Translations under genes and position numbers: made by a program | The notes under the pieces: model-generated | The model's input: the letters and a program-made list of their open reading frames with translations, nothing else | Database searches by the model: none | Told to the model about the DNA's origin: nothing | Assembly: GCF_037076525.1 (NCBI RefSeq) | Contig: NZ_AP029018.1 | Span: 992,001-1,056,000 of the forward strand | Reading direction: 5' to 3' | DNA from: Selenomonas sp. TAMA-11512 | GTDB taxonomy: Bacteria > Bacillota > Negativicutes > Selenomonadales > Selenomonadaceae | DNA length: 64,000 nt | Part shown: one piece after another, positions 6,883-33,133 of the stretch | Position numbering within the stretch: position 1 is the stretch's first letter | Layout: each line of letters starts with the position of its first letter

Positions 6883-8103
6883 ATGGGAAACAAAGTAAAT
6901 GTTAAAAAAGTTGTTCTTGCTTATTCGGGCGGACTCGATACGTCCGTCATCATCCCTTGGCTGAAGGAAAACTATGACGGCTGCGAGGTCATCGCTGTCT
7001 GCGCGGATCTCGGACAGGGCTCGGAGATCGACGTCGTTTATGACAAGGCGCTGAAGTCAGGCGCGTCCAAGTGCTTTATAGAGGATCTGTCCGCGGAATT
7101 CCTTGAGAACTATGTCTGGCCTACGCTTCGTGCCGGTGCCGTCTATGAGGGCAAGTATCTCCTCGGCACATCCTTTGCCCGCCCGGTCATCGCAAAGCGC
7201 CTTGTCGAGATTGCTCGGCAGGAGGGAGCGGATGCGGTTGCTCACGGCGCGACGGGCAAAGGCAACGATCAGGTTCGCTTTGAGCTGACGGTCAAAGCGC
7301 TCGCACCGGATCTTACGATCATCGCTCCATGGCGTGAGTGGGAGATTCGCTCGCGTACGGATGCCATCGAGTTTGCGAAGAAGCACAACATCCCCATCTC
7401 CACAGAGAACAAGAAGTACAGTATGGACCGCAACATCTGGCATCTTTCTCATGAGGGTTCCGATTTGGAGGATCCCTGGAATGCTCCGCAGAATGAGATG
7501 TACCTTGTTTCCAAGGCTCCTGAGGACGCTCCGGATACGGCGGAGTTCATAGAGATTGCGTTTGAGAAGGGCAACCCGGTCGCTGTCAACGGCAAGAAGA
7601 TGGGCTCGGTCGAGCTCCTTACGACACTCAATGAGATCGGTGCGAAGAACGGCATCGGAATTACGGATATCTGCGAGAATCGCCTTGTCGGCATGAAGTC
7701 TCGCGGTGTCTATGAGAACCCGGGTGGCGCTATTCTCTACTATGCGCACCGTGAGCTGGAGTACTTGACGCTGGATCGCGCGACACTTCATTACAAGGAA
7801 GGCGTCGCTATTCGCTTTGCCGAGCTCGTCTATGACGGCATGTGGTTCAGCCAGCTCCGTGAGGCGCTGCAGGCATTTGTCGATGACACGCAGAAGTCGG
7901 TCACGGGTACGGTTCGCCTCAAGCTCTACAAGGGCAATATCATGAGTGCCGGTGCGAAGTCGCCATACTCTCTCTACAGCAAAGAGTTCGTCACATTTGA
8001 AGAGGACAATGTATACGATCAGAACGACGGGACCGGCTTCATCAATCTCTTCGGGCTGCCGCTCAAGGTTCGTGCGCTCATGCAGGAAAAGGCCGGTAAG
8101 TAA
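6883..8103 (+). CDS. argG: Argininosuccinate synthase
   Basis: ATP-dependent condensation of citrulline and aspartate. The N-terminal PP-loop [10 protein letters not shown] (about residues 13-22) binds [18 protein letters not shown] and [12 protein letters not shown] are conserved substrate-site segments. At 406 residues it belongs to the short, prokaryotic-type class. It starts 15 nt after argF with AAAGGAG as ribosome site, and its TAA overlaps the argH ATG by one base (TAATG). Confidence 0.97.
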
Positions 8104-21999: not shown

Positions 22000-22557
22000 T
22001 CATGCTTTGCTCCAATCACAGTCATCCGTGTGTGCGGCGAGTACGCCGATGGCCTGCAGCGTTGAGTAGATGCAGGTTGAGCCGACAAACTTCATGCCGC
22101 GCCGCTTGAGGTCCTTCGATATCTCATCCGAGAGGGGGGAAGTCGTGCGCAGCTCGCAGCTTTCTCGGATGGACTTGCCGTCCGTAAATCCCCAAATATA
22201 CTTGTCAAATGAGCCGTATTCACGCACGATGTCGAGAAAGACGCGGCTGTTCGTAATGCTGGCTTCGATCTTGCGGCGGTTTCGGATAATCCCTGTGTTC
22301 TGCATGAGCTCTTCAATCTTTGCCGCATCGAACGCGGCGACGCGTTCGGGGATGAATCCCTCATAGGCACGGCGAAAGTTCTCTCGCTTGTGAAGAATTG
22401 TTGCCCACGACAGTCCCGCCTGAAACGTCTCGAGAATAAAGAGTTCATAGAGTGCCCGATCATCGTGGAGCGGCTGCCCCCACTCTTCGTCATGATACTT
22501 TACATAGATGGGATCGTCCGGCTTCACCCAGACGCATCGCCTGCATTCGTGTTTCAT
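22000..22557 (-). CDS. tag: DNA-3-methyladenine glycosylase I
   Basis: Removes 3-methyladenine from alkylated DNA. The 185 residues include CRRCVWVKPDDPIYVKYHDEEWG at the start (in parts) and the closing HTDDCDW; these supply the Cys and His zinc ligands of TAG. LFILETFQAGLSWATIL is the helix-hairpin-helix region with the substrate Glu. ATG 22557 was chosen: it matches the family start and has GGAGG 9 nt upstream; the frame is open 33 codons further but without support. Confidence 0.93.
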   Translation of the reverse strand: MKHECRRCVWVKPDDPIYVKYHDEEWGQPLHDDRALYELFILETFQAGLSWATILHKRENFRRAYEGFIPERVAAFDAAKIEELMQNTGIIRNRRKIEASITNSRVFLDIVREYGSFDKYIWGFTDGKSIRESCELRTTSPLSDEISKDLKRRGMKFVGSTCIYSTLQAIGVLAAHTDDCDWSKA

Positions 22558-22659
22558 ATTCTTCAGCCTCCGTAAAATGCCGATGTCCGAAAGGATGCCG
22601 GCTTGCATATATACATGAAAATAGTTAGGACTCACGCCGTGAACGTATTGTCTCAAACA

Positions 22660-22984
22660 ATGCGAGCCGTAAAACTGATTTATATTCCAATATGAACAGC
22701 ATTGTAACGGGCTTTTCGAACCGCGTCAAGAAGGATACACTGAAAGGCCGTATTCTCCATGCTTTATGATTCCCTTCTTGTCCGCTGTTGATAACCTTGC
22801 GTTTTATCTCTGCTCGTTTTCAGCGAACACGCCGTAATGAGGGGGAGAATCTGTGCGCGGAATGTATGTCTGATTACAAATTCAATCTGCATGCGAAATG
22901 TTCCTGCATAATAGAAAGGAATCCGCAAAGCCACGCATGAATATGATATAATAGAGTAAATCAGATCAATGTGGAGTGAAGATC
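22660..22984. other. Intergenic region, no gene seen
   Basis: About 325 nt of non-coding character. The only signal is a -10-like TATAAT at 22947-22952, without a matching -35, ahead of the small interrupted ORF at 22985. Confidence 0.4.
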
Positions 22985-23119
22985 ATGACGTGATTTGCAC
23001 GGATGGTGAATGATCGTGTGAAACAGGCGGAGGTCATGTTTATGTTGGATGGCTCACATAGATCAGATTTTGTGGCGTGGCTGTTCTCCTGTCTGCGTGA
23101 CAACAGGAGCATATATTGA
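22985..23119 (+). pseudogene. Small ORF interrupted by an early TGA (speculative)
   Basis: An ATG at 22985 stands 8 nt after GGAG, the ideal spacing, but the third codon is TGA (22991-22993). The same frame then stays open for 41 codons (FARMVNDRVKQAEVMFMLDG onward) to TGA at 23117. Restart at ATG 23003 would give 38 residues, without a clear ribosome site. Not recognised; it may be a decayed small gene or chance. Confidence 0.25.
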
Positions 23120-23155
23120 TTTTTTGGAGAGTAATTTGGAAGCGGAGGAATCACC

Positions 23156-23671
23156 ATGCGTAAAGCAATCGTTGTCGTAGATATGCAGAACGACTTTATC
23201 GACGGGGCTCTGGGGACGAAAGAGGCGCGGGAGATGCTGCCGCGCATGGTCGAAAAGCTTACGGCGGAGCAGGCGGCGGGCACGGCGATCATCTTCACCA
23301 TGGATACTCACGGAGAGGACTACCTGGAAACGCAGGAGGGAAAAAAGCTCCCCGTCGAGCACTGCATTCGCGGTACGGCGGGATGGCAGATCGCGAACGC
23401 ATTGCAGACCTTCGTGCATGCGGCGGCTGCCGTCATCGAAAAGCCCGCCTTCGGCGCGACAGAGCTGCCCGCTGTCCTTACAGACTATGATGCAATCGAA
23501 CTCACCGGACTTTGTACCGACATCTGTGTCATTTCCAATGCCCTCATCCTCAAGGCGTTCTACCCCGAAAAGCCTATCGCTGTTGACTCCTCCTGCTGCG
23601 CGGGCGTAACACCCGAGAGCCATGCGAATGCTCTCGCGGCAATGCGGATGTGTCAGGTGGAGGTGCGGTGA
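23156..23671 (+). CDS. Isochorismatase-family cysteine hydrolase (nicotinamidase-like)
   Basis: Small alpha/beta hydrolase with a Cys-Asp-Lys triad. The 171 residues show VVDMQNDFIDGALG (catalytic Asp about 9), a Lys in VIEKPAFGATEL, and the nucleophile region ELTGLCTDICVISNA. MDTHGEDYLET resembles the metal-binding loop of nicotinamidases, and IRGTAGWQI matches the following segment. Nicotinamide deamidation for NAD salvage is the best guess, but other amides are possible. AGCGGAGGAATCACC precedes the ATG. Confidence 0.85.
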   Translation: MRKAIVVVDMQNDFIDGALGTKEAREMLPRMVEKLTAEQAAGTAIIFTMDTHGEDYLETQEGKKLPVEHCIRGTAGWQIANALQTFVHAAAAVIEKPAFGATELPAVLTDYDAIELTGLCTDICVISNALILKAFYPEKPIAVDSSCCAGVTPESHANALAAMRMCQVEVR

Positions 23672-23728
23672 ACAAAGCCTCAAGCATACAGATATGGCGC
23701 ATCTTTATACACGAGGTAGGGAGATAAA

Positions 23729-25684
23729 ATGGGGAGAGCATATTATTCGGATTCGATTTTATCGTTTTTGACTGCGAAAGAAGATCATGTCCTCGGGAGG
23801 TTGATGATTGAGGATTCGTTTCGGACGGAGGACACTCAAAAGAACACATGGCGCACGGAAATTCAAATTTTAAAGGATCAACTTGTCTCATTTGCGACAG
23901 GGGAAATCGCCTTTGAGTTCACTATTCCGCGTATTGGACATCGTGTGGATGTTGTACTCATCATTCAGGGGATTATTTTCCTCCTGGAGTTCAAGGTCTG
24001 CGATACAACCTATGCGAAATCAACGAAAGATCAGGTCATGGATTATGCGCTTGATCTCAAGTATTTCCACGAGGCAAGCAGAGATCGTACGATTGTGCCG
24101 ATCATCGTGCCAACAGAGGCGGACGAGCAGGTCAACACACTCTCTCTGATGGAGGATAAAATTGCGCAGGTGCTTTGCTGCAATCGTCATAACATCGGAT
24201 TGACTATTCGCAGCGTTCGATCGCAGATGTATGCGGAACCTCTTGCAATGGATTCCTGGCTGGATGCGCGCTATGCACCGACGCCGACCATCATTGAGGC
24301 GGCACAGGCACTCTATCGTGAGCACTCTGTGCGCGACATATCGCGCAATGATGCGGGGGCAGAGAATCTCACTGTGACAACGGCAGTCATCAACCAAATC
24401 ATTGACGACTGCAAAGCGCATCGAAAGAAAGCAATCTGTTTTATCACAGGCGTCCCCGGGGCAGGAAAGACACTTGCGGGGCTCAATATCGCCAATGAGC
24501 GACATCAGTTCAACGAGGATGAGCATGCCGTATTCCTCTCGGGGAATGGCCCTCTTGTTGCCGTTTTGCAGGAGGCACTGGCGCGCGATCGGGCAGCAAC
24601 GCATCGTGTGAGCAAGGAACAGGCACGTCGCGAAACGAAGGCATTTATTCAGGTGATTCACAAATTCCGCGACGAGGCATTGTCTTCATCATTCCCGCCC
24701 GTCGAGAAGGTCGCTATTTTTGATGAGGCGCAGCGCGCATGGGATGCCGATGCACTGATGAAATTTATGAAACGGAAGAAGGGTGTGGCGAATTTTCAGC
24801 AATCAGAACCCGAATTCCTCATCAGCATTATGGAGCGGCATCAGGACTGGGCGGTCATTATCTGCCTCGTCGGCGGCGGTCAGGAGATCAATACGGGTGA
24901 GGCTGGGATTGCAGCGTGGCTGGATGCGCTGCGGCATCAATATCCGAACTGGGAGATCTACCTCTCGGATCGGATGACAGACAGCGAGTATGTGGGGAGC
25001 AGTGACGTCCAGCAGATGTTGGAGGATCGTCCGTATCATATTGCACCGTCCCTGCATCTAGGTGTATCGCTGCGCTCCTTCCGCAGTGAGAAGCTGGCAG
25101 ATTTCGTCAAGGCTCTGCTCAATGAGGATATCACTGCGGCTCGGGCGCTCTATGCCGCGCTTCATCCGACTTATCCGATTGTCATGACGCGGGATCTCGC
25201 ACGAGCAAAGGCATGGGTGCGTGGAAAAGTGCGCGGGACGGAGCGGGCCGGAATGCTTGCGAGCTCGAAGGCAAAGTGACTGAGAAGCGTTGGTGTTTGG
25301 GTGAACGTACAGCGGGACCCTATTGCGTGGTTTTTGAATGAGCCGGTGAATGCAGATGCTTCGTGTTTTCTCGAGGTTCCTGCCACGGAGTTTGAGGTAC
25401 AGGGCCTTGAGATCGACTATGGGCTTCTCGCATGGGATGCGGACCTCCGCTATTGTGATGGAGGATTCGACTATTTTGATTGTCGCGGAGCCCGCTGGAT
25501 GCACGTCAATAAGGAGGATGGGAAAAAGTATCTCAAAAACGCCTATCGTGTCTTGCTTACACGCGCCCGTCAGGGGCTTGTGATCTATATTCCAGAGGGC
25601 GATCCCGACGATCTGACGCGCCTGTCGGAATACTATGATGGTACATATGCATATTTGCGCTCTCTTAGGATTTGGGAGATATAA
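23729..25684 (+). pseudogene. DUF2075 nuclease-helicase protein, interrupted by in-frame TGA
   Basis: Schlafen-group-3-like helicase, 651 codons with one TGA at 25277-25279 (codon 517). The N-terminus has a PD-(D/E)xK-like nuclease pattern: Asp74 in HRVDVVL and EFK at 87-89. Next come Walker A GVPGAGKT (about 243), Walker B AIFDEAQRAWD (about 330) and, after the stop and in the same frame, TEFEVQGLEIDYG, YLKNAYRVLLTRARQG (motif VI) and YIPEGDPDDL. Homologues read through this point, so the TGA most likely arose from CGA. The first part (516 residues) would lack motif VI and so probably fails as a helicase. Possible phage-defence gene next to the AEP gene. Confidence 0.88.
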
Positions 25685-25956
25685 ATACTGTCTGGGATCG
25701 CTTTTTCACAAGTCATTGAATTGACTTTTATCATTGATACTTTAATGGTATTCAACTACGATAAAAGATATGTTGCCTTGCTGCATATGTATAATTATCT
25801 CAAACTTCGCACATCAAAAACATACGTAAAACCTTGAAAATTCTGGCTCTGCAGGTGAAAAAACATCCCGCCTATGCATATGAATCCATAGTATCAGGGA
25901 GATATTATTCATAGCCTATATCATGTTCGGACGGAATCGGACGACAGTTGAAGTGT
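25685..25956 (+). other. AT-rich leader before the AEP gene
   Basis: 270 nt, clearly richer in A+T than the flanks. A TATAAT (25790-25795) is present without a good -35. No ORF or hairpin of note. Confidence 0.4.
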
Positions 25957-28938
25957 ATGGCAGATACTATTTCGGAAATACAATCGTTAAAAACGAGAAT
26001 AAAAGAGCTTGAGCGGGAGAATGCGTATCTCAAAGGAGTCCTTGCCAAATCAAGCATAGAATATTCGATTTCTCCCATGAACAATCCGGAAGCAAAAACT
26101 TTTGATTTGAGCCAAGGTGCGAGAATTATTCCGGTGGAAATAACGAGAAATCATGCGCGACGCTTTTTTTCATATTTCTGGGGACGTATGGATGTATACA
26201 GTAAGCGTGCTCAGAATAAAACTACGGGAAAAGCAGGGTATTATCCGCAATGTGATAATTTCTGGCGGCGTGGTATCTGTCCGAAAGCTTCTGGGATGAA
26301 AATTAAATGTAAGAATTGTGACTACAGAAGATGGACGACACTTGAAGGAATACAAATCGAAAACCATTTAAAAGGGTTAAAAGAAGATTCTTCCGATGTT
26401 ATAGGAATATATCCGTTATTTCCCGATGGCTCCTGTCGTTTTCTTGTGTTTGATTTTGATAATCATGATAAAGGGGCTTATGAACTCGATTTTGCGAATA
26501 CCGAAGAAAGCTGGATTAACGAAGTAAACGCGCTTCGGGAAATCTGTAAAGTAAATCATATCCCCGCCTTAGTTGAACGTTCTCGGTCCGGGAAAGGGGC
26601 TCATGTCTGGATTTTCTTTGAAACACCGGTTTCGGCTGCTCTTGCGCGGAAATTCGGATTCGCGCTGCTCGAAAAAGGCGCCGAATCAGTGAATATGACA
26701 TCTTTTCGCTTCTATGACAGAATGATTCCGGCGCAGGATTGTCTTGTCGATGGAGAGCTTGGAAATCTGATTGCGCTACCGCTCCAGGGAATGGCTTTGC
26801 GGGAAGGTAACAGTGCATTTATTGATGAAAATTGGAATGTGTATCCTGATCAGTGGAAGGCACTAATTTCAACTTCAAAAATCTCCGAAAAAGAAATGGA
26901 AAATCTGCTGCATCAATGGAATACTATTGAGTCTGAGAACGATTCAAATCCATTTACGGTTTCTGACGGAACAAAGCCGTGGGAAAGGAAAAGTGCGTTT
27001 AACAGAGCAGATGTAACAGGACAATTGAATATTACGCTATCCAACATGATCTATATCGAGTCTGCAAATATAAAGCCGCGTCTTCAAAATCAACTGAGAC
27101 GAATGGCCGCATTTTTGAATCCGATGTTTTTCAGAAACAATGCCTTCGGATTATCAAATTATGAAAATTCGAGATATATCTATCTTGGTGCGGATGATAG
27201 TGGTTATATTTGCATGCCGAGTGGATTGCTGGATCAGATTTTTGAAAAATGCGATAATACCGGAATACCGTATACTTTTTCGGATGAGCGTTGTGAAGGC
27301 GATCCGTTAAAGGTCACCTTCATTGGAGAGCTTCGAGAAAGGCAGATTATAGCTGTAGATAAACTACTGCAATACGAATGCGGTATTCTGAGTGCGGCCA
27401 CTGCGTTTGGTAAAACCGTAGTCTGCAGTAATCTGATTGCGCAGAAAAAGGTGAACACTTTAGTTCTGCTTGAGTCATCCGCGTTGATTGAACAATGGGA
27501 AAAAGCTCTTTCAACATTCCTGAAAATTGATGAGGAATTGCCGGAATACAAGACGAAATCCGGCCGTATAAAAACACGAAAAAGTCTTGTCGGGGTTATT
27601 CGCGGAGCAAAAGATACCTCTACCGGAATCATTGATATTGCAATGGCCGGTTCGCTTTTCAAAAAAGATGAACCACATTCTCGCTTGAAAGAATATGGTA
27701 TGATCCTCGTTGATGAGTGTCATCACAGCGCATCGGAAACGGTCAGTAGAGTATTGAAAGAAGTATCCACCAAGTATGTTTACGGTGTTACGGCAACACC
27801 GTTTCGGGGCGACGGCCTTGAAAGAATTAATGAAATGCTGCTTGGTCCGGTACGTTTTCAATATACTGCCAGGGAGAAAGCAGAGGAGCAGGGAATCGAT
27901 CATCTGATTGTGCCTCGTTTTACAAGGACAGTCAGCCCACATGGACGCGATAAACTTCATATTAATGAGGCATATGCAATTATCCGCAATAATGAAATGC
28001 GAAATGAGCAGATTGTTGGCGATATTAAACAATGTATTGATGCAGGTAGGACTCCGGTAGTTCTTACCAGATTCACAGACCACGCCGATATTCTTTATGA
28101 ATCTGTAAAAGATTGTGCAGAAAATGTATTTCTTCTTACCGGAAATAAATCCAAAAAGGAGCAACGAGAGCTTCGCATACAAATGGATTCGGTTCCCCAC
28201 ACAGAATCGCTGATTCTTATTGCGACCGGGCAGCTGATCGGTGAAGGATTTGATTATCCCCGGCTTGATACTTTGATTATGGCGGATCCTGTTGCATGGA
28301 AGGGGATTGTCGAACAGTATGCCGGACGCTTGAATCGGGACTTCGAAGGCAAGAAGAATGTCATGATTTATGATTACATTGATGCAAACATTCCCATATT
28401 TGATAATATGTATGCCAAACGCATGCGTGCCTATAAACGCATTGGCTATAGGTTATGCGATGAAAAAACAGGCGAAAAGCAGACAGCAAATGCAATATTC
28501 GATTCGGACACATATGGAGAAGTATATGAGCAAGATCTGATTGAGGCAAAGGAGGATATTGTAATCTCAAGCCCTACACTTGGAAGAAACAAAGTTATGC
28601 GTATGTTGAAACTGCTTAAGGATCGGCAGGAATACGGTGTGAAGATAACTATTGTGACATGGCATCCGGATGCGTATCTTTTCGGACGTCAAGAACATCG
28701 AATTGAACTGATGGAAGCCCTTCATAATGCAGGATTTAATATTGAGCTCGTGGAAGATAATTGTGAGCGTTATGCTGTTATTGACAATGAAATCGTATGG
28801 TATGGCAGCATGAATCTTTTATCAAAAGAAGATGTCGAAGATAATATTATGAGAGTGGTCAGCAAATGTATAGCATCTGAATTGCTGGAAATTACTTTTG
28901 AAAAGGGGAATAGTTTAAAAAAATACGGGAACTGCTGA
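25957..28938 (+). CDS. AEP primase - SF2 helicase - PLD nuclease fusion (TOTE-type conflict protein)
   Basis: A 993-residue fusion, probably for defence. In order: coiled coil (about 5-30); a four-Cys zinc site (Cys99, 108, 118, 121); an archaeo-eukaryotic primase domain with the acidic pair in FLVFDFDNHD (Asp166, Asp168) and SGKGAHVW (His216); an SF2 helicase with ATAFGKT (Lys486), VDECHH (586-), VTATPFRG and QYAGRLNR (787-); and a C-terminal PLD-like module ending YGSMNLLSKEDVEDN (949-), whose HKD motif is degenerate. The build fits proteins annotated as AEP domains of TOTE conflict systems. Codon use is AT-rich, unlike neighbours, pointing to transfer. ATG 25957 is preferred to a TTG at 25948; the ribosome site is weak. 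Confidence 0.85.
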   Translation: MADTISEIQSLKTRIKELERENAYLKGVLAKSSIEYSISPMNNPEAKTFDLSQGARIIPVEITRNHARRFFSYFWGRMDVYSKRAQNKTTGKAGYYPQCDNFWRRGICPKASGMKIKCKNCDYRRWTTLEGIQIENHLKGLKEDSSDVIGIYPLFPDGSCRFLVFDFDNHDKGAYELDFANTEESWINEVNALREICKVNHIPALVERSRSGKGAHVWIFFETPVSAALARKFGFALLEKGAESVNMTSFRFYDRMIPAQDCLVDGELGNLIALPLQGMALREGNSAFIDENWNVYPDQWKALISTSKISEKEMENLLHQWNTIESENDSNPFTVSDGTKPWERKSAFNRADVTGQLNITLSNMIYIESANIKPRLQNQLRRMAAFLNPMFFRNNAFGLSNYENSRYIYLGADDSGYICMPSGLLDQIFEKCDNTGIPYTFSDERCEGDPLKVTFIGELRERQIIAVDKLLQYECGILSAATAFGKTVVCSNLIAQKKVNTLVLLESSALIEQWEKALSTFLKIDEELPEYKTKSGRIKTRKSLVGVIRGAKDTSTGIIDIAMAGSLFKKDEPHSRLKEYGMILVDECHHSASETVSRVLKEVSTKYVYGVTATPFRGDGLERINEMLLGPVRFQYTAREKAEEQGIDHLIVPRFTRTVSPHGRDKLHINEAYAIIRNNEMRNEQIVGDIKQCIDAGRTPVVLTRFTDHADILYESVKDCAENVFLLTGNKSKKEQRELRIQMDSVPHTESLILIATGQLIGEGFDYPRLDTLIMADPVAWKGIVEQYAGRLNRDFEGKKNVMIYDYIDANIPIFDNMYAKRMRAYKRIGYRLCDEKTGEKQTANAIFDSDTYGEVYEQDLIEAKEDIVISSPTLGRNKVMRMLKLLKDRQEYGVKITIVTWHPDAYLFGRQEHRIELMEALHNAGFNIELVEDNCERYAVIDNEIVWYGSMNLLSKEDVEDNIMRVVSKCIASELLEITFEKGNSLKKYGNC

Positions 28939-29015
28939 TACATTCTTTTGATCGGCATCTCTCCACTGAAAGGATATAATAGAGGAAGAAGCAACACGAC
29001 GAGGGGAGCAACAAG

Positions 29016-29237
29016 ATGGTGCAACAAACATTTACCGACATGGAATATGCAAATCGTACAAGAACAATGCGGAGAGAAGTCTTTCTATATGCCATGGCAT
29101 TCATTGCACCGTTCTGCGCCCCCAAAGAGCGTGGCGGGAGATTGATTTCGCCGGAAACCACACTGCGCATGTACCTCAGACAAAACATGTTTGGACGTTC
29201 AAGTGAGGGAAAACATCGCCGGTCGGACAGTAAATGA
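29016..29237 (+). pseudogene. IS5-type transposase remnant
   Basis: 73 codons: QQTFTDMEYANRTRTMRREVF then SPETTLRMYLRQNMFG. The first piece matches the start of IS5-family transposases, and the second matches the PLE-x-LRMYF-x-Q region that normally follows about 40 residues later. The space between is shortened and everything after is gone, including the DDE residues. GAGGGG precedes the ATG. No complete insertion sequence or clear end repeats were found around it. Confidence 0.6.
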
Positions 29238-29319
29238 AAGAAGCGTCATGTCTGTCTTGAGACTGTTTCACGCTACATTCCGTCATGTGATGACTCGTGA
29301 AAACGGTAAAAGCAAAATA

Positions 29320-29347
29320 TTGAGAAAATATAAAATTATAGTATAAT
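29320..29347 (+). promoter_or_regulatory. Probable promoter of the alkyl sulfatase gene
   Basis: TTGAGA (29320-29325), a 16-bp spacer and TATAAT (29342-29347), 109 nt before the TTG start. Confidence 0.6.
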
Positions 29348-29455
29348 AGAAGTCATGATGGTATATTGCTCGAAATCAATGTACAGGAATTAATGTACAT
29401 GAAAATTTCGGAGAAACTGATTTTGACATGTTATGTGATATGGGAGTGAGAAACA

Positions 29456-31522
29456 TTGAAAAAGAAAACAACGGGCAAGGCGATTCTTTCACTGGCGGGC
29501 GCAATTCTGCTTGCCGCCGTACCCTGCGGGACGGCAGAGATGGCGGCAGGAGTCGGAAGCGGAGCGGCGGCACAGGAGCTGACATCGGATTCAAAGGGCG
29601 CGACGGAATTTACAAAGCAAAAGAACGAGGCCGTCCGCAGCCTGTTGGATTTTAACGACAGACAAGAAGCGGAATTTGCCACAAGAGGGCGGATTGCCTC
29701 GCCTGAAAAGCTTGAAATCAAGGATGCCGACGGCAATATCGTATGGAGTCAGAAGGCGTATGATTTTCTGGAAGGCACAGCGGAGAGTCCCGATACCGCC
29801 AATCCGAGCCTCTGGGAAAATGCCAAAAACAACCATGCCTATGGCCTTTTCGAGGTAGAAAAGGGAATATACCAGGTTCGCGGTTATGACATGGCGAATC
29901 TCACCCTTGTGGAGGGAGATACAGGCTGGATTGTACTCGATACGACTATGTGCATCGAATGTGCAGATGCGGCTTTTGATCTTGTCAAACAACATCTTGG
30001 AGAAAAGCCGATCAAAGCGGTCATTATATCGCATCCCCATGTCGACCATTTCGGCGGCGTCGGGGCTTTTGTGAACAATAAAACGGTTGCGGATGCCTCC
30101 CTGCCTATCAAGAAGCAGCTTGCGGGCGATAAGATTCCGCTCATTGTTCCGGAGGGATTTACTGCCCATGCGGTGGAAGAGAATCTCTATGCGGGCAACG
30201 CCATGGGAAGGCGCGCAAACTATCAATACGGCACGCTTATCGACAAATCTCCGACGGGCGCTCTGTCGATCGGCATCGGCATGGGACAGTCCAAGGGCAC
30301 GGTATCCTTTGTCGTGCCGTCGTACGAGGTAAAAAAGACAGGTGAAAGAATCACGATTGACGGTGTAGAGATGGAATTTCAGCTGACGCCCGGAACGGAA
30401 GCACCTGCCGAGATGAACATATACTTCCCGCGCTATAAGGCTCTTTGGGCCGCGGAGAACTGTACGGCAACACTCCATAACCTATACACCCTGCGCGGCG
30501 CCGAGGTACGCGACGGAAACGCATGGGCGAAATATATCATGGAAGCGATATCACGGTACGCCGATCAATCGGAGGTTGTCTTCCAGTCGCACAACTGGCC
30601 GCATTGGGGCAAAGGGGTCATCCGCGATTATATGCTGAATACCGCCGCGGTATACAAGTACATCAACGACCAGTCATTGACATATATCAACCAAGGCTAC
30701 AACGGCGTAGAAATCGAAAATATGATGCAGCTGCCGAACCGTCTTTCCAAAAACTGGTATACAAGACCGTATTATGGGACGCCGGCCCACAATGCCATGG
30801 CGGTTTATCAGAAATATATGGGCTACTATGACGCCAACCCGGTGAACCTCTGCAGACTGCCTGCCGAGCAAAGTGCGAAGAAGATGGCCCAATATCTGGA
30901 GCTTGGCAGCATGGACGCATGCCTTGCACAGGCGAAGCGGGATTTTGCCAAGGGAGAATATCAGTGGGTTGCCGAATTCACCAATCAGCTCGTATTCGCG
31001 GATCCCTCGAATAGGGAAGCAAGACTTCTCTGCGCGGATGCGCTCGAGCAGCTGGGCTATCAGGCGGAATCCGGTACATGGCGTAACTGCTACTTGACCG
31101 GCGCGCTTGAGCTGCGGAAGGGAAATATGGCAAAACCGCCCAGGGGCGGCGATAAATTTGGCAGTGCCCTCATGAGCCAGCTTACACCGGAGATGGCGTT
31201 CGACTACATGGATATTCTGCTGGATAAGAAGGCGATGGCAGACCGGGATGCCGAGATTCTCTTCCACCTCGAAGATCTCGGCAAATACTACAGAGTATAT
31301 CTTGTGGACGGTGTCCTTCTCCATGCGGAGGATGCGGGAAAAGAACCTGCGGACACGACGGTTGAATGCACCTCCAAGACGATGCTCCTCCTGTTCATGG
31401 ATTATGATGCATTTGCCCGGAAGGCAAGGATTGCGGGAGATGCAGCCTTACTGCAAAGACTGGCTGCCAACCTGACTGAGATCGATCGAAAATCCGGCAT
31501 GTTTAATATTGTGGAGCCATGA
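29456..31522 (+). CDS. Secreted alkyl/aryl sulfatase, metallo-beta-lactamase fold (SdsA-type)
   Basis: Hydrolyses primary alkyl sulfates (SDS-like) to alcohol and sulfate. The 688-residue precursor has a signal peptide (about 1-36). The zinc motif is ISHPHVDHFGGVG (His193, His195, Asp197, His198). TPGTEAPAEMNIYFP and WAAENCTATLHN supply further ligands, and a C-terminal dimerisation/SCP2-like part follows, as in SdsA1/BDS1. The start codon is TTG with GGGAGTGAG upstream; no in-frame ATG fits. Alone in its transcription unit. A role in using or detoxifying sulfated surfactants or host sulfoesters is inferred. Confidence 0.92.
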   Translation: MKKKTTGKAILSLAGAILLAAVPCGTAEMAAGVGSGAAAQELTSDSKGATEFTKQKNEAVRSLLDFNDRQEAEFATRGRIASPEKLEIKDADGNIVWSQKAYDFLEGTAESPDTANPSLWENAKNNHAYGLFEVEKGIYQVRGYDMANLTLVEGDTGWIVLDTTMCIECADAAFDLVKQHLGEKPIKAVIISHPHVDHFGGVGAFVNNKTVADASLPIKKQLAGDKIPLIVPEGFTAHAVEENLYAGNAMGRRANYQYGTLIDKSPTGALSIGIGMGQSKGTVSFVVPSYEVKKTGERITIDGVEMEFQLTPGTEAPAEMNIYFPRYKALWAAENCTATLHNLYTLRGAEVRDGNAWAKYIMEAISRYADQSEVVFQSHNWPHWGKGVIRDYMLNTAAVYKYINDQSLTYINQGYNGVEIENMMQLPNRLSKNWYTRPYYGTPAHNAMAVYQKYMGYYDANPVNLCRLPAEQSAKKMAQYLELGSMDACLAQAKRDFAKGEYQWVAEFTNQLVFADPSNREARLLCADALEQLGYQAESGTWRNCYLTGALELRKGNMAKPPRGGDKFGSALMSQLTPEMAFDYMDILLDKKAMADRDAEILFHLEDLGKYYRVYLVDGVLLHAEDAGKEPADTTVECTSKTMLLLFMDYDAFARKARIAGDAALLQRLAANLTEIDRKSGMFNIVEP

Positions 31523-31675
31523 TATCAGCAGCGGTTGGATATTCTTCCGGCCGCTGCTTTCGGGTATAATGGACGAAACTCCATTGAAAGATTCGGGGAT
31601 GCAAGGATTTTTGCCTATTATGAAATCGCAAGTGAAATGAGCTGGAACGATGACAGCTTTGCAGAGGTGGTTTGC

Positions 31676-32284
31676 ATGAAAAATGCCGTTATATATATAC
31701 ATGGCAAAAACGGTTCTGCTGATGAGGCTCACTATTATAAAAAGTTTTTCAATGATGATTATGAAGTTGTAGGTTTTGATTATAAATCCGAATTGCCGTG
31801 GGATGTTAGAGAAGAATTTCAAAAGTATATCGATGACATGATTTTGAAGTATAACGAAATTATATTGATTGGAACAAGTGTGGGAGCATATTTCGCTTTA
31901 TTATCCTTAGCAGGAAAAACGATTAAAAAGGCGCTGTTTATTTCACCTGTTGTAGATATGGAAAAATTGATAACGGATATGATGGAACGGTCAAATATCA
32001 CGGAAGATGAATTAAAAAGCAAGAAAGAACTTGATACGGAGTTTGGAGAGACTCTATCCTGGGAATACTTGCTTTATGCACGAAACCATCCGATTGAGTG
32101 GAATATACCTACACACATTCTATATGGAGAGAAAGATAATTTAACTGCTAAAGAAACCCTATATGATTTTGCAGAAAGAACAGGCGCAATACTTTCCGTA
32201 ATGAAAAATGGGGAACATTGGTTTCACACAAATGAGCAAATGAGAGTTCTTGATAATTGGATTAGAGATTCAATTTGCCGGTAA
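31676..32284 (+). CDS. Small alpha/beta hydrolase
   Basis: Cytoplasmic 202-residue hydrolase. HGKNGSADEAHYY forms the oxyanion-side loop, the nucleophile elbow is IGTSVGAYFAL (Ser about 74), Asp is in LYGEKDNLT (about 163) and His in NGEHWFHTNEQ (about 184). Substrate unknown. Codon use is strongly AT-rich compared with flanking genes, so recent acquisition is likely. ATG 31676 follows GAGGTGG; the open frame upstream to 31535 has no ribosome site and different composition. Confidence 0.85.
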   Translation: MKNAVIYIHGKNGSADEAHYYKKFFNDDYEVVGFDYKSELPWDVREEFQKYIDDMILKYNEIILIGTSVGAYFALLSLAGKTIKKALFISPVVDMEKLITDMMERSNITEDELKSKKELDTEFGETLSWEYLLYARNHPIEWNIPTHILYGEKDNLTAKETLYDFAERTGAILSVMKNGEHWFHTNEQMRVLDNWIRDSICR

Positions 32285-32356
32285 TTGAGTTGATATAATG
32301 GTATAATAATTGTTGCCGAAAAATATGCAGGATATGGTAGGAGGCAGGAGAAGAGT

Positions 32357-32671
32357 ATGGCATCAAGCAAAGAATACTTGGATTTTGTGCTGGACCAGCT
32401 TTCTGAATTGGAGCAAGTGTCTTATCGGTCGATGATGGGCGAATACATTATCTATTATCGTGGAAAGGTTATTGGAGGCATCTATGATGATCGATTTCTT
32501 TTAAAAGCAACGAAGTCCGCTGCAGCAATGTTGCCTGATACAGATAGGGAATCTCCCTATGATGGCGCAAAGGAAATGCTTCTTGTGGACAATATGGAGA
32601 ATAGGGAATTCCTGAAGAAGGTGATGGATGCTATGTATGAGGAACTCCCATTCCCAAAGAAAAAGAAATAA
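32357..32671 (+). CDS. TfoX N-terminal domain protein
   Basis: 104 residues matching the stand-alone TfoX/Sxy N-terminal domain: YLDFVLDQLSELEQVSYRSMMGEYIIYYRGKVIGGIYDDRFLLK in parts (SMMGEYIIYYRGKVIG is the core), ending in a lysine tail. In proteobacteria the full protein promotes competence; the single-domain Firmicute form has no settled role. TAGGAGGCAGG precedes the ATG at a long distance (about 16 nt); AGAAGAGT is closer. Confidence 0.85.
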   Translation: MASSKEYLDFVLDQLSELEQVSYRSMMGEYIIYYRGKVIGGIYDDRFLLKATKSAAAMLPDTDRESPYDGAKEMLLVDNMENREFLKKVMDAMYEELPFPKKKK

Positions 32672-32752
32672 TGAGACAGAGAGGAAGACTTCGTGTATAA
32701 TGATTGTAGTAATCGATTCGATGTTTGCCTGAAAAGAATTGGAGGCTAAGTC

Positions 32753-33133
32753 ATGAAATTAAAAATGATTCCATTTTTATGCCTGTTTTTATTAACGGGC
32801 TGCGGAGGCAGTGCTGCCGCTGACGGGTATACTAAGATAACGGCGCAGGAGGCTTTGCAGCAGATTTCCCAAAATCCTGATGCCATCATTGTGGATGTGC
32901 GGACGAAGGAAGAATACGCGGAGGGGCATGTCGCGAAGGCTATTCTTATCCCTAACGAGACGATTTCCAATGTGCCGCCGACGGAGCTGCCGGATAAGAA
33001 CGCGGAGATTTACGTGTACTGCCGCAGCGGCAATCGCAGCGCACAGGCAGGCAAGAAGCTCAGTGACATGGGCTATAAGCACGTTTATGATTTTGGCGCT
33101 TTTAGCAACTGGACTGGTGAAGTCAGTAAGTAA
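32753..33133 (+). CDS. Rhodanese-domain lipoprotein
   Basis: Sulfur-transfer fold exported as a lipoprotein. The 126 residues have lipobox LLTGC (Cys about 16), then one rhodanese domain: IIVDVRTKEEYAEGHVAKA and the active loop VYCRSGNRSAQAG with Cys about 89. The six-residue loop CRSGNR fits sulfur substrates. Thiosulfate or persulfide handling in the periplasm is a guess. Its own -10 (TATAAT near 32696) and TTGGAGG ribosome site are present. Confidence 0.9.
   Translation: MKLKMIPFLCLFLLTGCGGSAAADGYTKITAQEALQQISQNPDAIIVDVRTKEEYAEGHVAKAILIPNETISNVPPTELPDKNAEIYVYCRSGNRSAQAGKKLSDMGYKHVYDFGAFSNWTGEVSK

What the first reader, a model, noticed from the sequence alone, without database searches (positions are those of the whole stretch)
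25957..28938. Horizontally acquired AEP primase-helicase-PLD protein
One chain joins a zinc-bearing AEP primase, an SF2 helicase and a degenerate PLD module. Composition is AT-rich against GC-rich flanks. The build fits TOTE-type conflict systems, which are poorly characterised. How priming and unwinding protect the cell is open, and here the gene stands without obvious partners apart from the broken DUF2075 gene.
Basis: partly seen in the sequence, partly recalled or inferred. Interest (0 to 1): 0.65.

Follow-up and report, generated by a model that had tools for sequence, protein, structure and literature searches.

The report
Mobile primase-helicase with dead nuclease tail
A bacterium has picked up, from distant relatives, one gene that joins a DNA-priming enzyme, a DNA-opening motor and a nuclease-like tail that has lost its cutting residues; its function is untested, but where it sits suggests protection against invading DNA.

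Summary
The gene at 25957-28938 (+, 993 aa) joins an intact AEP primase-polymerase domain (PF22548, E 4.5e-81), an XPB-like SF2 helicase and a C-terminal PLD fold without its catalytic HxK. It is AT-rich (GC 0.414, window 0.530) and horizontally acquired: the nearest copies are in Clostridia and Treponema MAGs (72-79%), own-family copies are about 40%, and a joint clade with four of those is rejected (p-AU 3.4e-6).

'TOTE-type conflict system' fits only the domain family. A TOTE system is TPR, OB, TBP plus effector; TBP is in 0 of 40 AEP-TOTE genomes searched, own included, and no partner gene is conserved. It is a single-gene unit.

New here: three architectures (no PLD; PLD with HxKx4D; a clade, window included, with the HxK lost). 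Between the closest copies the dead tail is as conserved as the helicase. Nine of 13 loci tested one by one have a defence gene within two genes (no background rate measured); full E. coli copies follow YfjI-Gp2 genes of integrated elements.

Best reading: mobile, probably anti-invader helicase-primase; replication restart or repair and element maintenance remain live rivals. Function is inferred only.

The parts
25957..28938 (+). AEP primase-polymerase / XPB-like SF2 helicase / degenerate PLD fusion, 993 aa
25960..26049 (+). N-terminal long helix (residues 2-31), possible coiled coil
   Evidence: predicted structure, helix H2-31; coiled coil is inference
26149..26916 (+). AEP domain (residues 65-320), DxD D166/D168, H216, probable third acid D254
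   Evidence: PF22548; invariant residues; fold match to CAPP Prim-Pol 7nqd_A Z 24.9, rmsd 2.3 over 206 residues
26251..26319 (+). four invariant Cys (99, 108, 118, 121), probable zinc site
   Evidence: zinc binding is inference
27013..27306 (+). residues 353-450, region that may match the N-terminal part of archaeal XPB ahead of the helicase core
   Evidence: VIA rows 6p4w_A, 6p4o_A start at model residue 353-355; only first and last aligned residues are given, so tentative
27313..28461 (+). SF2 helicase core (residues 453-835), Walker A K486, DECHH 586-590, R617-x-D619 after motif III
28489..28881 (+). PLD-fold module (residues 845-975), catalytic His/Lys replaced by C936 and R938, D943 kept
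   Evidence: PLDc_2; alignments
23729..25684 (+). PDC-S41 / SLFN-g3 helicase (DUF2075) gene, interrupted by one in-frame stop at codon 517
23156..23671 (+). isochorismatase-fold gene, upstream neighbour of PDC-S41 also in genus g6 (4 of 5 stretches read)
25685..25956 (.). AT-rich intergenic stretch (GC 0.364) between PDC-S41 and the fusion gene
29016..29237 (+). remnant of the N-terminus of a transposase (IS5-type, name recalled); related remnants elsewhere in the genome
   Evidence: DNA matches 65-75% at three other stretches, two places of the genome, translations; no Pfam hit

Best explanation
A horizontally mobile, single-gene helicase-primase, most likely an accessory anti-invader (anti-phage or anti-plasmid) factor. 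Shown by sequence or fold prediction: an intact Prim-Pol domain close to CRISPR-associated Prim-Pol, an intact XPB/UvsW-like SF2 motor, and a PLD fold without its catalytic His and Lys. Inferred: the motor opens or remodels abnormal duplexes (forks, R-loops, D-loops of replicating invaders), the Prim-Pol primes and extends DNA on the exposed strand, and the catalytically dead PLD module holds DNA or dimerises the protein (PLD nucleases with one HKD motif work as dimers; recalled). Relatives that keep HxKx4D may add a cut; this clade would act by unwinding and synthesis, disturbing invader replication or making a product for another enzyme to act on.
For: Domains and invariant catalytic residues; predicted structure, mean pLDDT 82.4, matches CAPP Prim-Pol (Z 24.9, 2.3 A over 206) and archaeal XPB (Z 25.6, rmsd 8.1 over 382, lobes differently placed). 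The DxD aligns to the DxD of Marinitoga sp. 1137 CAPP; in the M. piezophila CAPP the D177A/D179A change abolishes activity (PMC8211822, passages; equivalence of the two is inferred). Mobility: AU test, presence in 10 of 189 family genomes and 37 of 398 phylum genomes, occupied and empty PriA-AlkD sites. Defence context: defence-type genes within 2 genes in 9 of 13 loci tested one by one (window, L002, L003, L005, L006, L009, L013, L019, L022); GajA, HKD+Snf2, AbiE and SIR2-HerA within 7 kb downstream of PDC-S41 in genus g6; in E. coli, 4 of 4 full copies read follow YfjI and Gp2/YfjJ genes, one of them beside ShosTA, and one stump at that place is followed by MkoAB. Dead PLD kept between close copies: 84% identity to L002, helicase 84-86%, AEP 81%.
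Against: No phage or plasmid assay exists that I saw. No background rate of defence genes was measured, and the loci tested were partly picked because neighbours looked defence-like. L014-L017 gave no strong defence neighbour among the proteins tested. In genus g22 the gene sits between PriA and AlkD, and in L040 next to an endonuclease-IV-like gene (by eye), a repair setting. Two further E. coli stumps lie beside aerobactin genes, not in YfjI-Gp2 elements. In genus g6 the genes directly after PDC-S41 are not defence genes (by eye). The PLD part is less conserved than the helicase between distant copies (window-L037 34% against 43-45%). PADLOC's two PrimPol models are described as CAS-associated and adaptation polymerase, not as a stand-alone defence.
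Confidence: 0.5

Rival explanations
1. Replication restart or DNA damage tolerance: an XPB-like motor clears or opens damaged forks and the Prim-Pol re-primes beyond lesions; the PLD fold is a DNA-binding tail.
For: XPB is the nearest solved helicase by sequence (6p4f_A) and by fold; the R-x-D after TATP (RED in own-family copies L036, L037, L040) resembles the XPB RED motif (XPB motif recalled). In genus g22 it lies between PriA and AlkD in 3 occupied loci; in L008 an AlkD-like gene follows. A Ppol in a Thermus mobile element affects genome stability (PMC9751324, abstract and outline; kinship to this family not tested).
Against: Patchy: 10 of 189 family genomes. Four g22 genomes have PriA directly followed by AlkD with no gene between, so the neighbours do not need it. 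Broken or truncated copies are common (L015, L022, L038, L041, L042; L020 and L021 keep only the primase part; some breaks may be assembly errors).
Confidence: 0.25
2. Replication or maintenance factor of mobile elements: the primase-helicase serves the element that carries it, and chromosomal copies are remnants.
For: Kazlauskas et al. report that the bacterial AEPs of the PrimPol-PV1 group (not this family) lie nearly exclusively in integrated mobile elements (PMC5862659, passages); non-CRISPR CAPP relatives, mostly with a helicase, are typically in mobile elements (PMC8211822 section 6). 226 plasmid records hold a match, 56 of them over at least 80% of the query.
Against: E. coli elements that carry it also carry YfjI, and three YfjI-Gp2 stretches read lack it. 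I recognised no integrase, relaxase or replicon gene around the window copy (by eye). None of 1709 matching phage records covers 80% of it.
Confidence: 0.17
3. The altered PLD site is not dead but re-tooled: C936 in the place of the nucleophilic His, with His or Arg at 938, forms another catalytic pair.
For: C936 is invariant in 13 of 13 A2 sequences, and between close copies the module is as conserved as the helicase.
Against: In own-family copies (L036, L037, L039, L040) the Cys is one residue away (NCH) and Asn takes the His place; L016 has Asn at 938. No precedent known to me.
Confidence: 0.05
4. Passenger gene without selected function, on its way to decay like the broken PDC-S41 next to it.
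For: AT-rich foreign DNA beside a transposase remnant; many broken copies elsewhere.
Against: The window copy is fully open with all catalytic motifs of the primase and helicase kept and 79% identity to L002 over nearly its whole length.
Confidence: 0.03

Closest known systems
AEP-TOTE domain family PF22548; RefSeq 'TOTE conflict system archaeo-eukaryotic primase domain-containing protein' (E. coli; probably the Z1568-like family, link recalled)
   Same: Same primase domain and AEP-SF2 helicase order; matching DNA in 1714 of 5426 E. coli genomes, 681 of them over at least 80% of the query
   Different: The four E. coli and plasmid copies translated here end after the helicase (786-852 aa) and lack the PLD module; the 30 best plasmid places listed also stop at query residue 834-853
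TOTE conflict systems (TPR, OB, TBP, Effector)
   Same: Effector primase domain of the same Pfam family (link by the Pfam name)
   Different: TBP in 0 of 1 own genome and 0 of 40 AEP-TOTE genomes; no TPR or OB gene among the scanned neighbours
CRISPR-associated Prim-Pol (CAPP_A, helicase type)
   Same: Nearest solved Prim-Pol; CAPP_A type 3 has Prim-Pol plus helicase
   Different: No CRISPR-like array in the window (1 of 188 sequences scanned has one, L117); NF040561 80.7 bits against a cut-off of 200; the sections read describe no PLD module
XPB / Rad25 and UvsW helicases
   Same: SF2 core and fold
   Different: NCBIfam XPB model 40.9 bits against a cut-off of 610; fused to a primase and a PLD fold
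PLD-helicase defence proteins (HKD+Snf2 C3a139; Mokosh MkoC)
   Same: Helicase plus PLD fold in one chain (recalled); weak MkoC and MkoB matches to the PLD part
   Different: Other helicase families, no primase (recalled); here the PLD site is degenerate

Membership tests
AEP-TOTE domain (PF22548) | Score over the curated cut-off (27 bits) | tested here: met
   272.2 bits
AEP-TOTE domain (PF22548) | AEP catalytic residues DxD and His | tested here: met
   D166, D168, H216 invariant in 20 of 20; DxD and His align to CAPP, the third acid is off by one in that alignment
TOTE conflict system | TBP gene | tested here: not met
   PF00352 in 0 of 1 own genome, 0 of 40 AEP-TOTE genomes, own included, of 45 then known; the control rang in 4 archaea of 14 genomes. 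A TBP too divergent for PF00352 would be missed
TOTE conflict system | TPR-OB gene beside the effector | tested here: not met
   Scanned neighbours from 22000 to 33133 are glycosylase, isochorismatase, PDC-S41, alkyl sulfatase, hydrolase, TfoX_N, rhodanese; no genome-wide search for TPR-OB was made
CAPP (CRISPR-associated Prim-Pol) | Prim-Pol fold | tested here: met
   Z 24.9, 2.3 A over 206 residues
CAPP (CRISPR-associated Prim-Pol) | Operon with CRISPR, Cas1, Cas2 | tested here: not met
   No CRISPR-like array in the window by a simple repeat scan; the only Cas1 match of the genome is about 1 Mb away, 40 bits
XPB helicase | SF2 core with XPB-like fold | tested here: met
XPB helicase | Curated XPB family score | tested here: not met
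   40.9 bits, cut-off 610
Active PLD (HKD) nuclease | HxKx4D motif | tested here: not met
   C936-E-R938-x4-D943; missing in 20 of 20 aligned sequences, one clade of 18 rows
Anti-phage defence system | Measured protection | not testable with these tools
   needs a phage challenge
Replication gene of a mobile element | Integrase, relaxase or replicon beside it in the window | tested here: inconclusive
   none recognised by eye in the frames nor in the proteins scanned; not an exhaustive scan; a transposase remnant is present

The most novel reading that the evidence does not exclude
A defence effector that works by DNA synthesis and strand opening rather than by cutting: in this clade the fused PLD nuclease lost its catalytic pair yet has been kept in Clostridia, Negativicutes, Erysipelotrichaceae and one Treponema MAG as a DNA-holding or dimer module, so that invader DNA is primed and remodelled in the wrong place.
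Probability: 0.2. Interest if true: 0.75.

Novelty: new variant of a known kind. Interest (0 to 1): 0.45.

Why it matters
AEP-SF2 helicase genes are common (matching DNA in 1714 of 5426 E. coli genomes, 681 of them over at least 80% of the query) and are named after a conflict system whose TBP marker is missing from the genomes searched here. I saw no experiment on them in the search listings (of which searches listed 25 of 143 and 12 of 79 papers). The split by PLD state (absent, HKD, dead) gives a natural series to test whether cutting is needed and what the primase does. If the dead-PLD copies protect cells, defence by misplaced priming would be a mechanism not described in the passages I read.

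Tried and rejected
Proper TOTE system: rejected, no TBP found and no TPR-OB neighbour. CRISPR adaptation polymerase: rejected for this locus. Phage replication protein: no phage record covers 80% of it. Viral contigs: one distant helicase match with the single protein; 28 loci with alignment A1, many matching only the helicase; of 14 whose frames I read, L156 and L157 have a PLD tail, and by eye L156 lies beside recombinase-like genes. PDC-S41 as a functional partner: also directly upstream in L022, but only 3 of 40 AEP-TOTE genomes match PDC-S41, own included, so I do not claim a pair. Conserved operon partner: none seen; the commonest Pfam family among 145 neighbours is Helicase_C in 6, and PriA and DNA_alkylation domains occur in 3 each (first 25 of 153 families shown). 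First structure model (13 sequences) was poor, pLDDT 49.9, and was not used. Flanking repeats as insertion ends: longest shared word 9 bases, not tested against chance. The dN/dS attempt failed (errors). The PLD part was not folded alone; fold searches mostly cover 356-837 and the AEP domain, so no PDB match for the PLD module is claimed.

Against a simple story of three clades: in the larger tree (45 rows) the dead-PLD rows stay one side of a branch (100), but L133 joins L156 apart from the other HKD rows and the PLD-less L162 lies apart from the other PLD-less rows; the PLD-less rows already need two changes. Trees are quick searches with SH-aLRT only and unrooted; that HxK was lost rather than gained is inferred from its being the PLD catalytic motif. 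The AU test was made after the tree had been seen.

Rows dropped: L035 was mistranslated and left out of the trees; L136, L137, L078, L133 left out, and L136, L137, L078, as long branches; L134 (cut short) has no PLD label; L004 and L006 lack N-terminal parts. 'PLD_HKD' includes L119 (Tyr for His) and L133 (His shifted by one). Strictly, 9 of 12 PLD copies outside the dead clade show HxKx4D (L118, L121, L122, L123, L125, L127, L128, L129, L157); L119, L133 and L156 do not. Neighbours: 242 within three genes, of which 145 went into the scans (within two genes, at least 105 aa, without L011, L018, L021, L042 and one fragment of the gene itself; five loci with only a cut copy gave none). TBP and PDC-S41 searches were given 40 of the 45 AEP-TOTE genomes found (G348, G390, G408, G434, G461 left out). 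E. coli stretches read: full copies L077, L079, L083, L084; stumps L085, L086, L087; YfjI-Gp2 without the gene L081, L082, L088.

Papers: PMC8211822 sections 6 and 15 plus passages; PMC12458937 and PMC5862659 passages; PMC9751324 abstract and outline; PMC7159879, PMC10853773, PMC12839542 word finds only; the rest search listings.
Full report
What is there. Window 25957-28938 (+) is one intact gene of 993 codons. Pfam finds AEP-TOTE (PF22548, E 4.5e-81, residues 71-319 in TTG-start numbering), ResIII and DEAD, a sub-threshold Helicase_C, and PLDc_2 just over its cut-off. With 24 sequences AlphaFold2 gave a usable model (mean pLDDT 82.4, pTM 0.67). The AEP part matches the CRISPR-associated Prim-Pol of Marinitoga (7nqd_A, Z 24.9, 2.3 A over 206 residues) and the middle matches archaeal XPB (Z 25.6, 382 residues, rmsd 8.1, i.e. 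lobes differently placed); Foldseek's first ten rows are XPB/TFIIH chains and UvsW.

The C-terminus. The PLD motif HxKx4D reads C936-E-R938-x4-D943. It is missing in 20 of 20 aligned sequences, window included. Wider sampling shows three architectures. Two E. coli, one Acinetobacter and one Paracoccus copy and several Bacillota copies end after the helicase. Another set carries an intact motif, HQKFAVID or similar (strictly 9 of 12 PLD copies outside the dead clade). The third set has lost it. On a tree built from AEP and helicase columns alone, the 18 dead-PLD rows form one side of a branch (SH-aLRT 100), the 8 'HKD' rows another (89), and PLD-less rows need two changes (40 rows). In a larger tree (45 rows) the dead clade holds, but L133 pairs with L156, whose site is also degenerate, apart from the other HKD rows. 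Between close copies the dead module is as conserved as the enzymes: window against L002, 84% in the PLD part, 84-86% in the helicase, 81% in the AEP, 65% in the linker; between distant copies it is less so (window-L037 34%, helicase 43-45%, AEP 48%). So the tail has lost its cutting residues but not its constraint.

Horizontal acquisition. The nearest copies are in Clostridia MAGs (79%, 75%), a Treponema MAG (72%) and a Bacillota MAG (71%). Copies in the window's own family, found in 10 of 189 genomes with the window's included, are near 40% identical. Forcing the window copy together with four of them is rejected, p-AU 3.4e-6, 176 log-likelihood units (36 rows after dropping L035, L136, L137, L078, L133; test made after a tree had been seen). 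Gene GC is 0.414 against 0.530, the lowest 3 kb of the window. Direct repeats that would mark an insertion were not found; a transposase remnant with relatives elsewhere in the genome lies downstream at 29016-29237.

Surroundings. Upstream lie an isochorismatase gene and PDC-S41 (DUF2075), the latter interrupted by one in-frame stop at codon 517. PDC-S41 is found with an open frame in five genomes of genus g6 at 84-86%, with the isochorismatase close by in four of the five stretches. In these five, a defence-type gene starts within 7 kb downstream: GajA in L069, HKD+Snf2 in L071 (the same protein start is seen in L068 and L070), AbiE and SIR2-HerA in L072; the genes directly after PDC-S41 are others. 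No g6 genome is among the 10 with an AEP-TOTE match, so the fusion gene was probably added at a place near which defence genes come and go. In genus g22 the equivalent gene lies between PriA and AlkD in three loci, while four genomes have PriA directly followed by AlkD (the other four of the eight gene-less genomes fetched lack that pair).

Partners. Among 145 neighbours within two genes, no Pfam family occurs in more than 6 proteins. Thirteen loci were tested for defence genes one by one; nine have one within two genes: window PDC-S41, L002 HEC-06/Orf5-like, L003 type IIG restriction-modification, L005 EcoEI-R C-terminal fragment (Pfam), L006 SoFic, L009 ZorD/DpdE-like, L013 AbiEi/AbiEii, L019 PDC-S02, L022 PDC-S41; L014, L015, L016 and L017 have none or weak ones among the proteins tested. 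The loci were partly chosen by eye and no background rate was measured. In E. coli 1714 of 5426 genomes hold matching DNA, 681 over at least 80% of the query. Four of four full copies read follow YfjI and Gp2/YfjJ genes, one beside ShosTA; of three stumps, one is at that place and followed by MkoAB, two lie beside aerobactin genes; three YfjI-Gp2 stretches lack the gene.

TOTE or not. TOTE stands for TPR, OB, TBP, Effector (PMC12458937 citing Aravind, Iyer et al. 2022; passages). TBP is in 0 of 1 own genome and 0 of 40 AEP-TOTE-bearing genomes, own included (40 of 45 known). The protein therefore belongs to the AEP-TOTE domain family, but the locus is not a TOTE system by this marker. It is also not CRISPR-linked: one of 188 sequences scanned has a CRISPR-like array, L117, and the only Cas1 match of the genome is about 1 Mb away.

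Mechanism, with steps marked. Shown by sequence or model: a motor and a polymerase/primase with intact sites, a PLD fold without catalytic His and Lys. By analogy: CAPP enzymes prime, extend and displace strands and depend on the DxD (PMC8211822, sections and passages). Inferred: ATP-driven opening of forks or R-loops by the XPB-like motor exposes template, the Prim-Pol primes on it, the tail anchors. The likely benefit is interference with invader replication (0.5 overall for the defence reading); repair and restart (0.25) and element maintenance (0.17) remain open, the first because of PriA, AlkD and the XPB resemblance, the second because relatives are often on mobile elements.

Verdict. 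The dead-nuclease clade is the new point. Interest 0.45.

Noticed in passing
window 31535-32284: A second AT-rich gene (GC 0.364), alpha/beta hydrolase-like with a UPF0227 match, next to the alkyl sulfatase gene; possibly another foreign gene.
   Followed up: no
window 23729-25684: PDC-S41 candidate defence gene carries a single in-frame stop at codon 517 while 9 of 9 other family genomes with a match hold a long open frame.
   Followed up: partly
L070 5525-8694: The last 45 codons of the isochorismatase gene are repeated just before PDC-S41, with about 2.5 kb between the copies: looks like an insertion that duplicated its target.
   Followed up: no
L012 1000-1182 and L011 6098-6250: Stray C-terminal pieces of the same gene family lie upstream of full copies in two loci, hinting at repeated insertion or replacement at one site.
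   Followed up: no
L020 and L021, match at 8001: Copies reduced to the first about 370 residues (primase part) without the helicase.
   Followed up: no
L117 43-278: A CRISPR-like repeat array beside a distant AEP-TOTE match in G237, the one such case among 188 sequences; perhaps a CAPP.
   Followed up: no
L118-L129, C-terminus: Relatives keep HQKFAVID, an intact PLD motif, on the same primase-helicase chain.
   Followed up: partly
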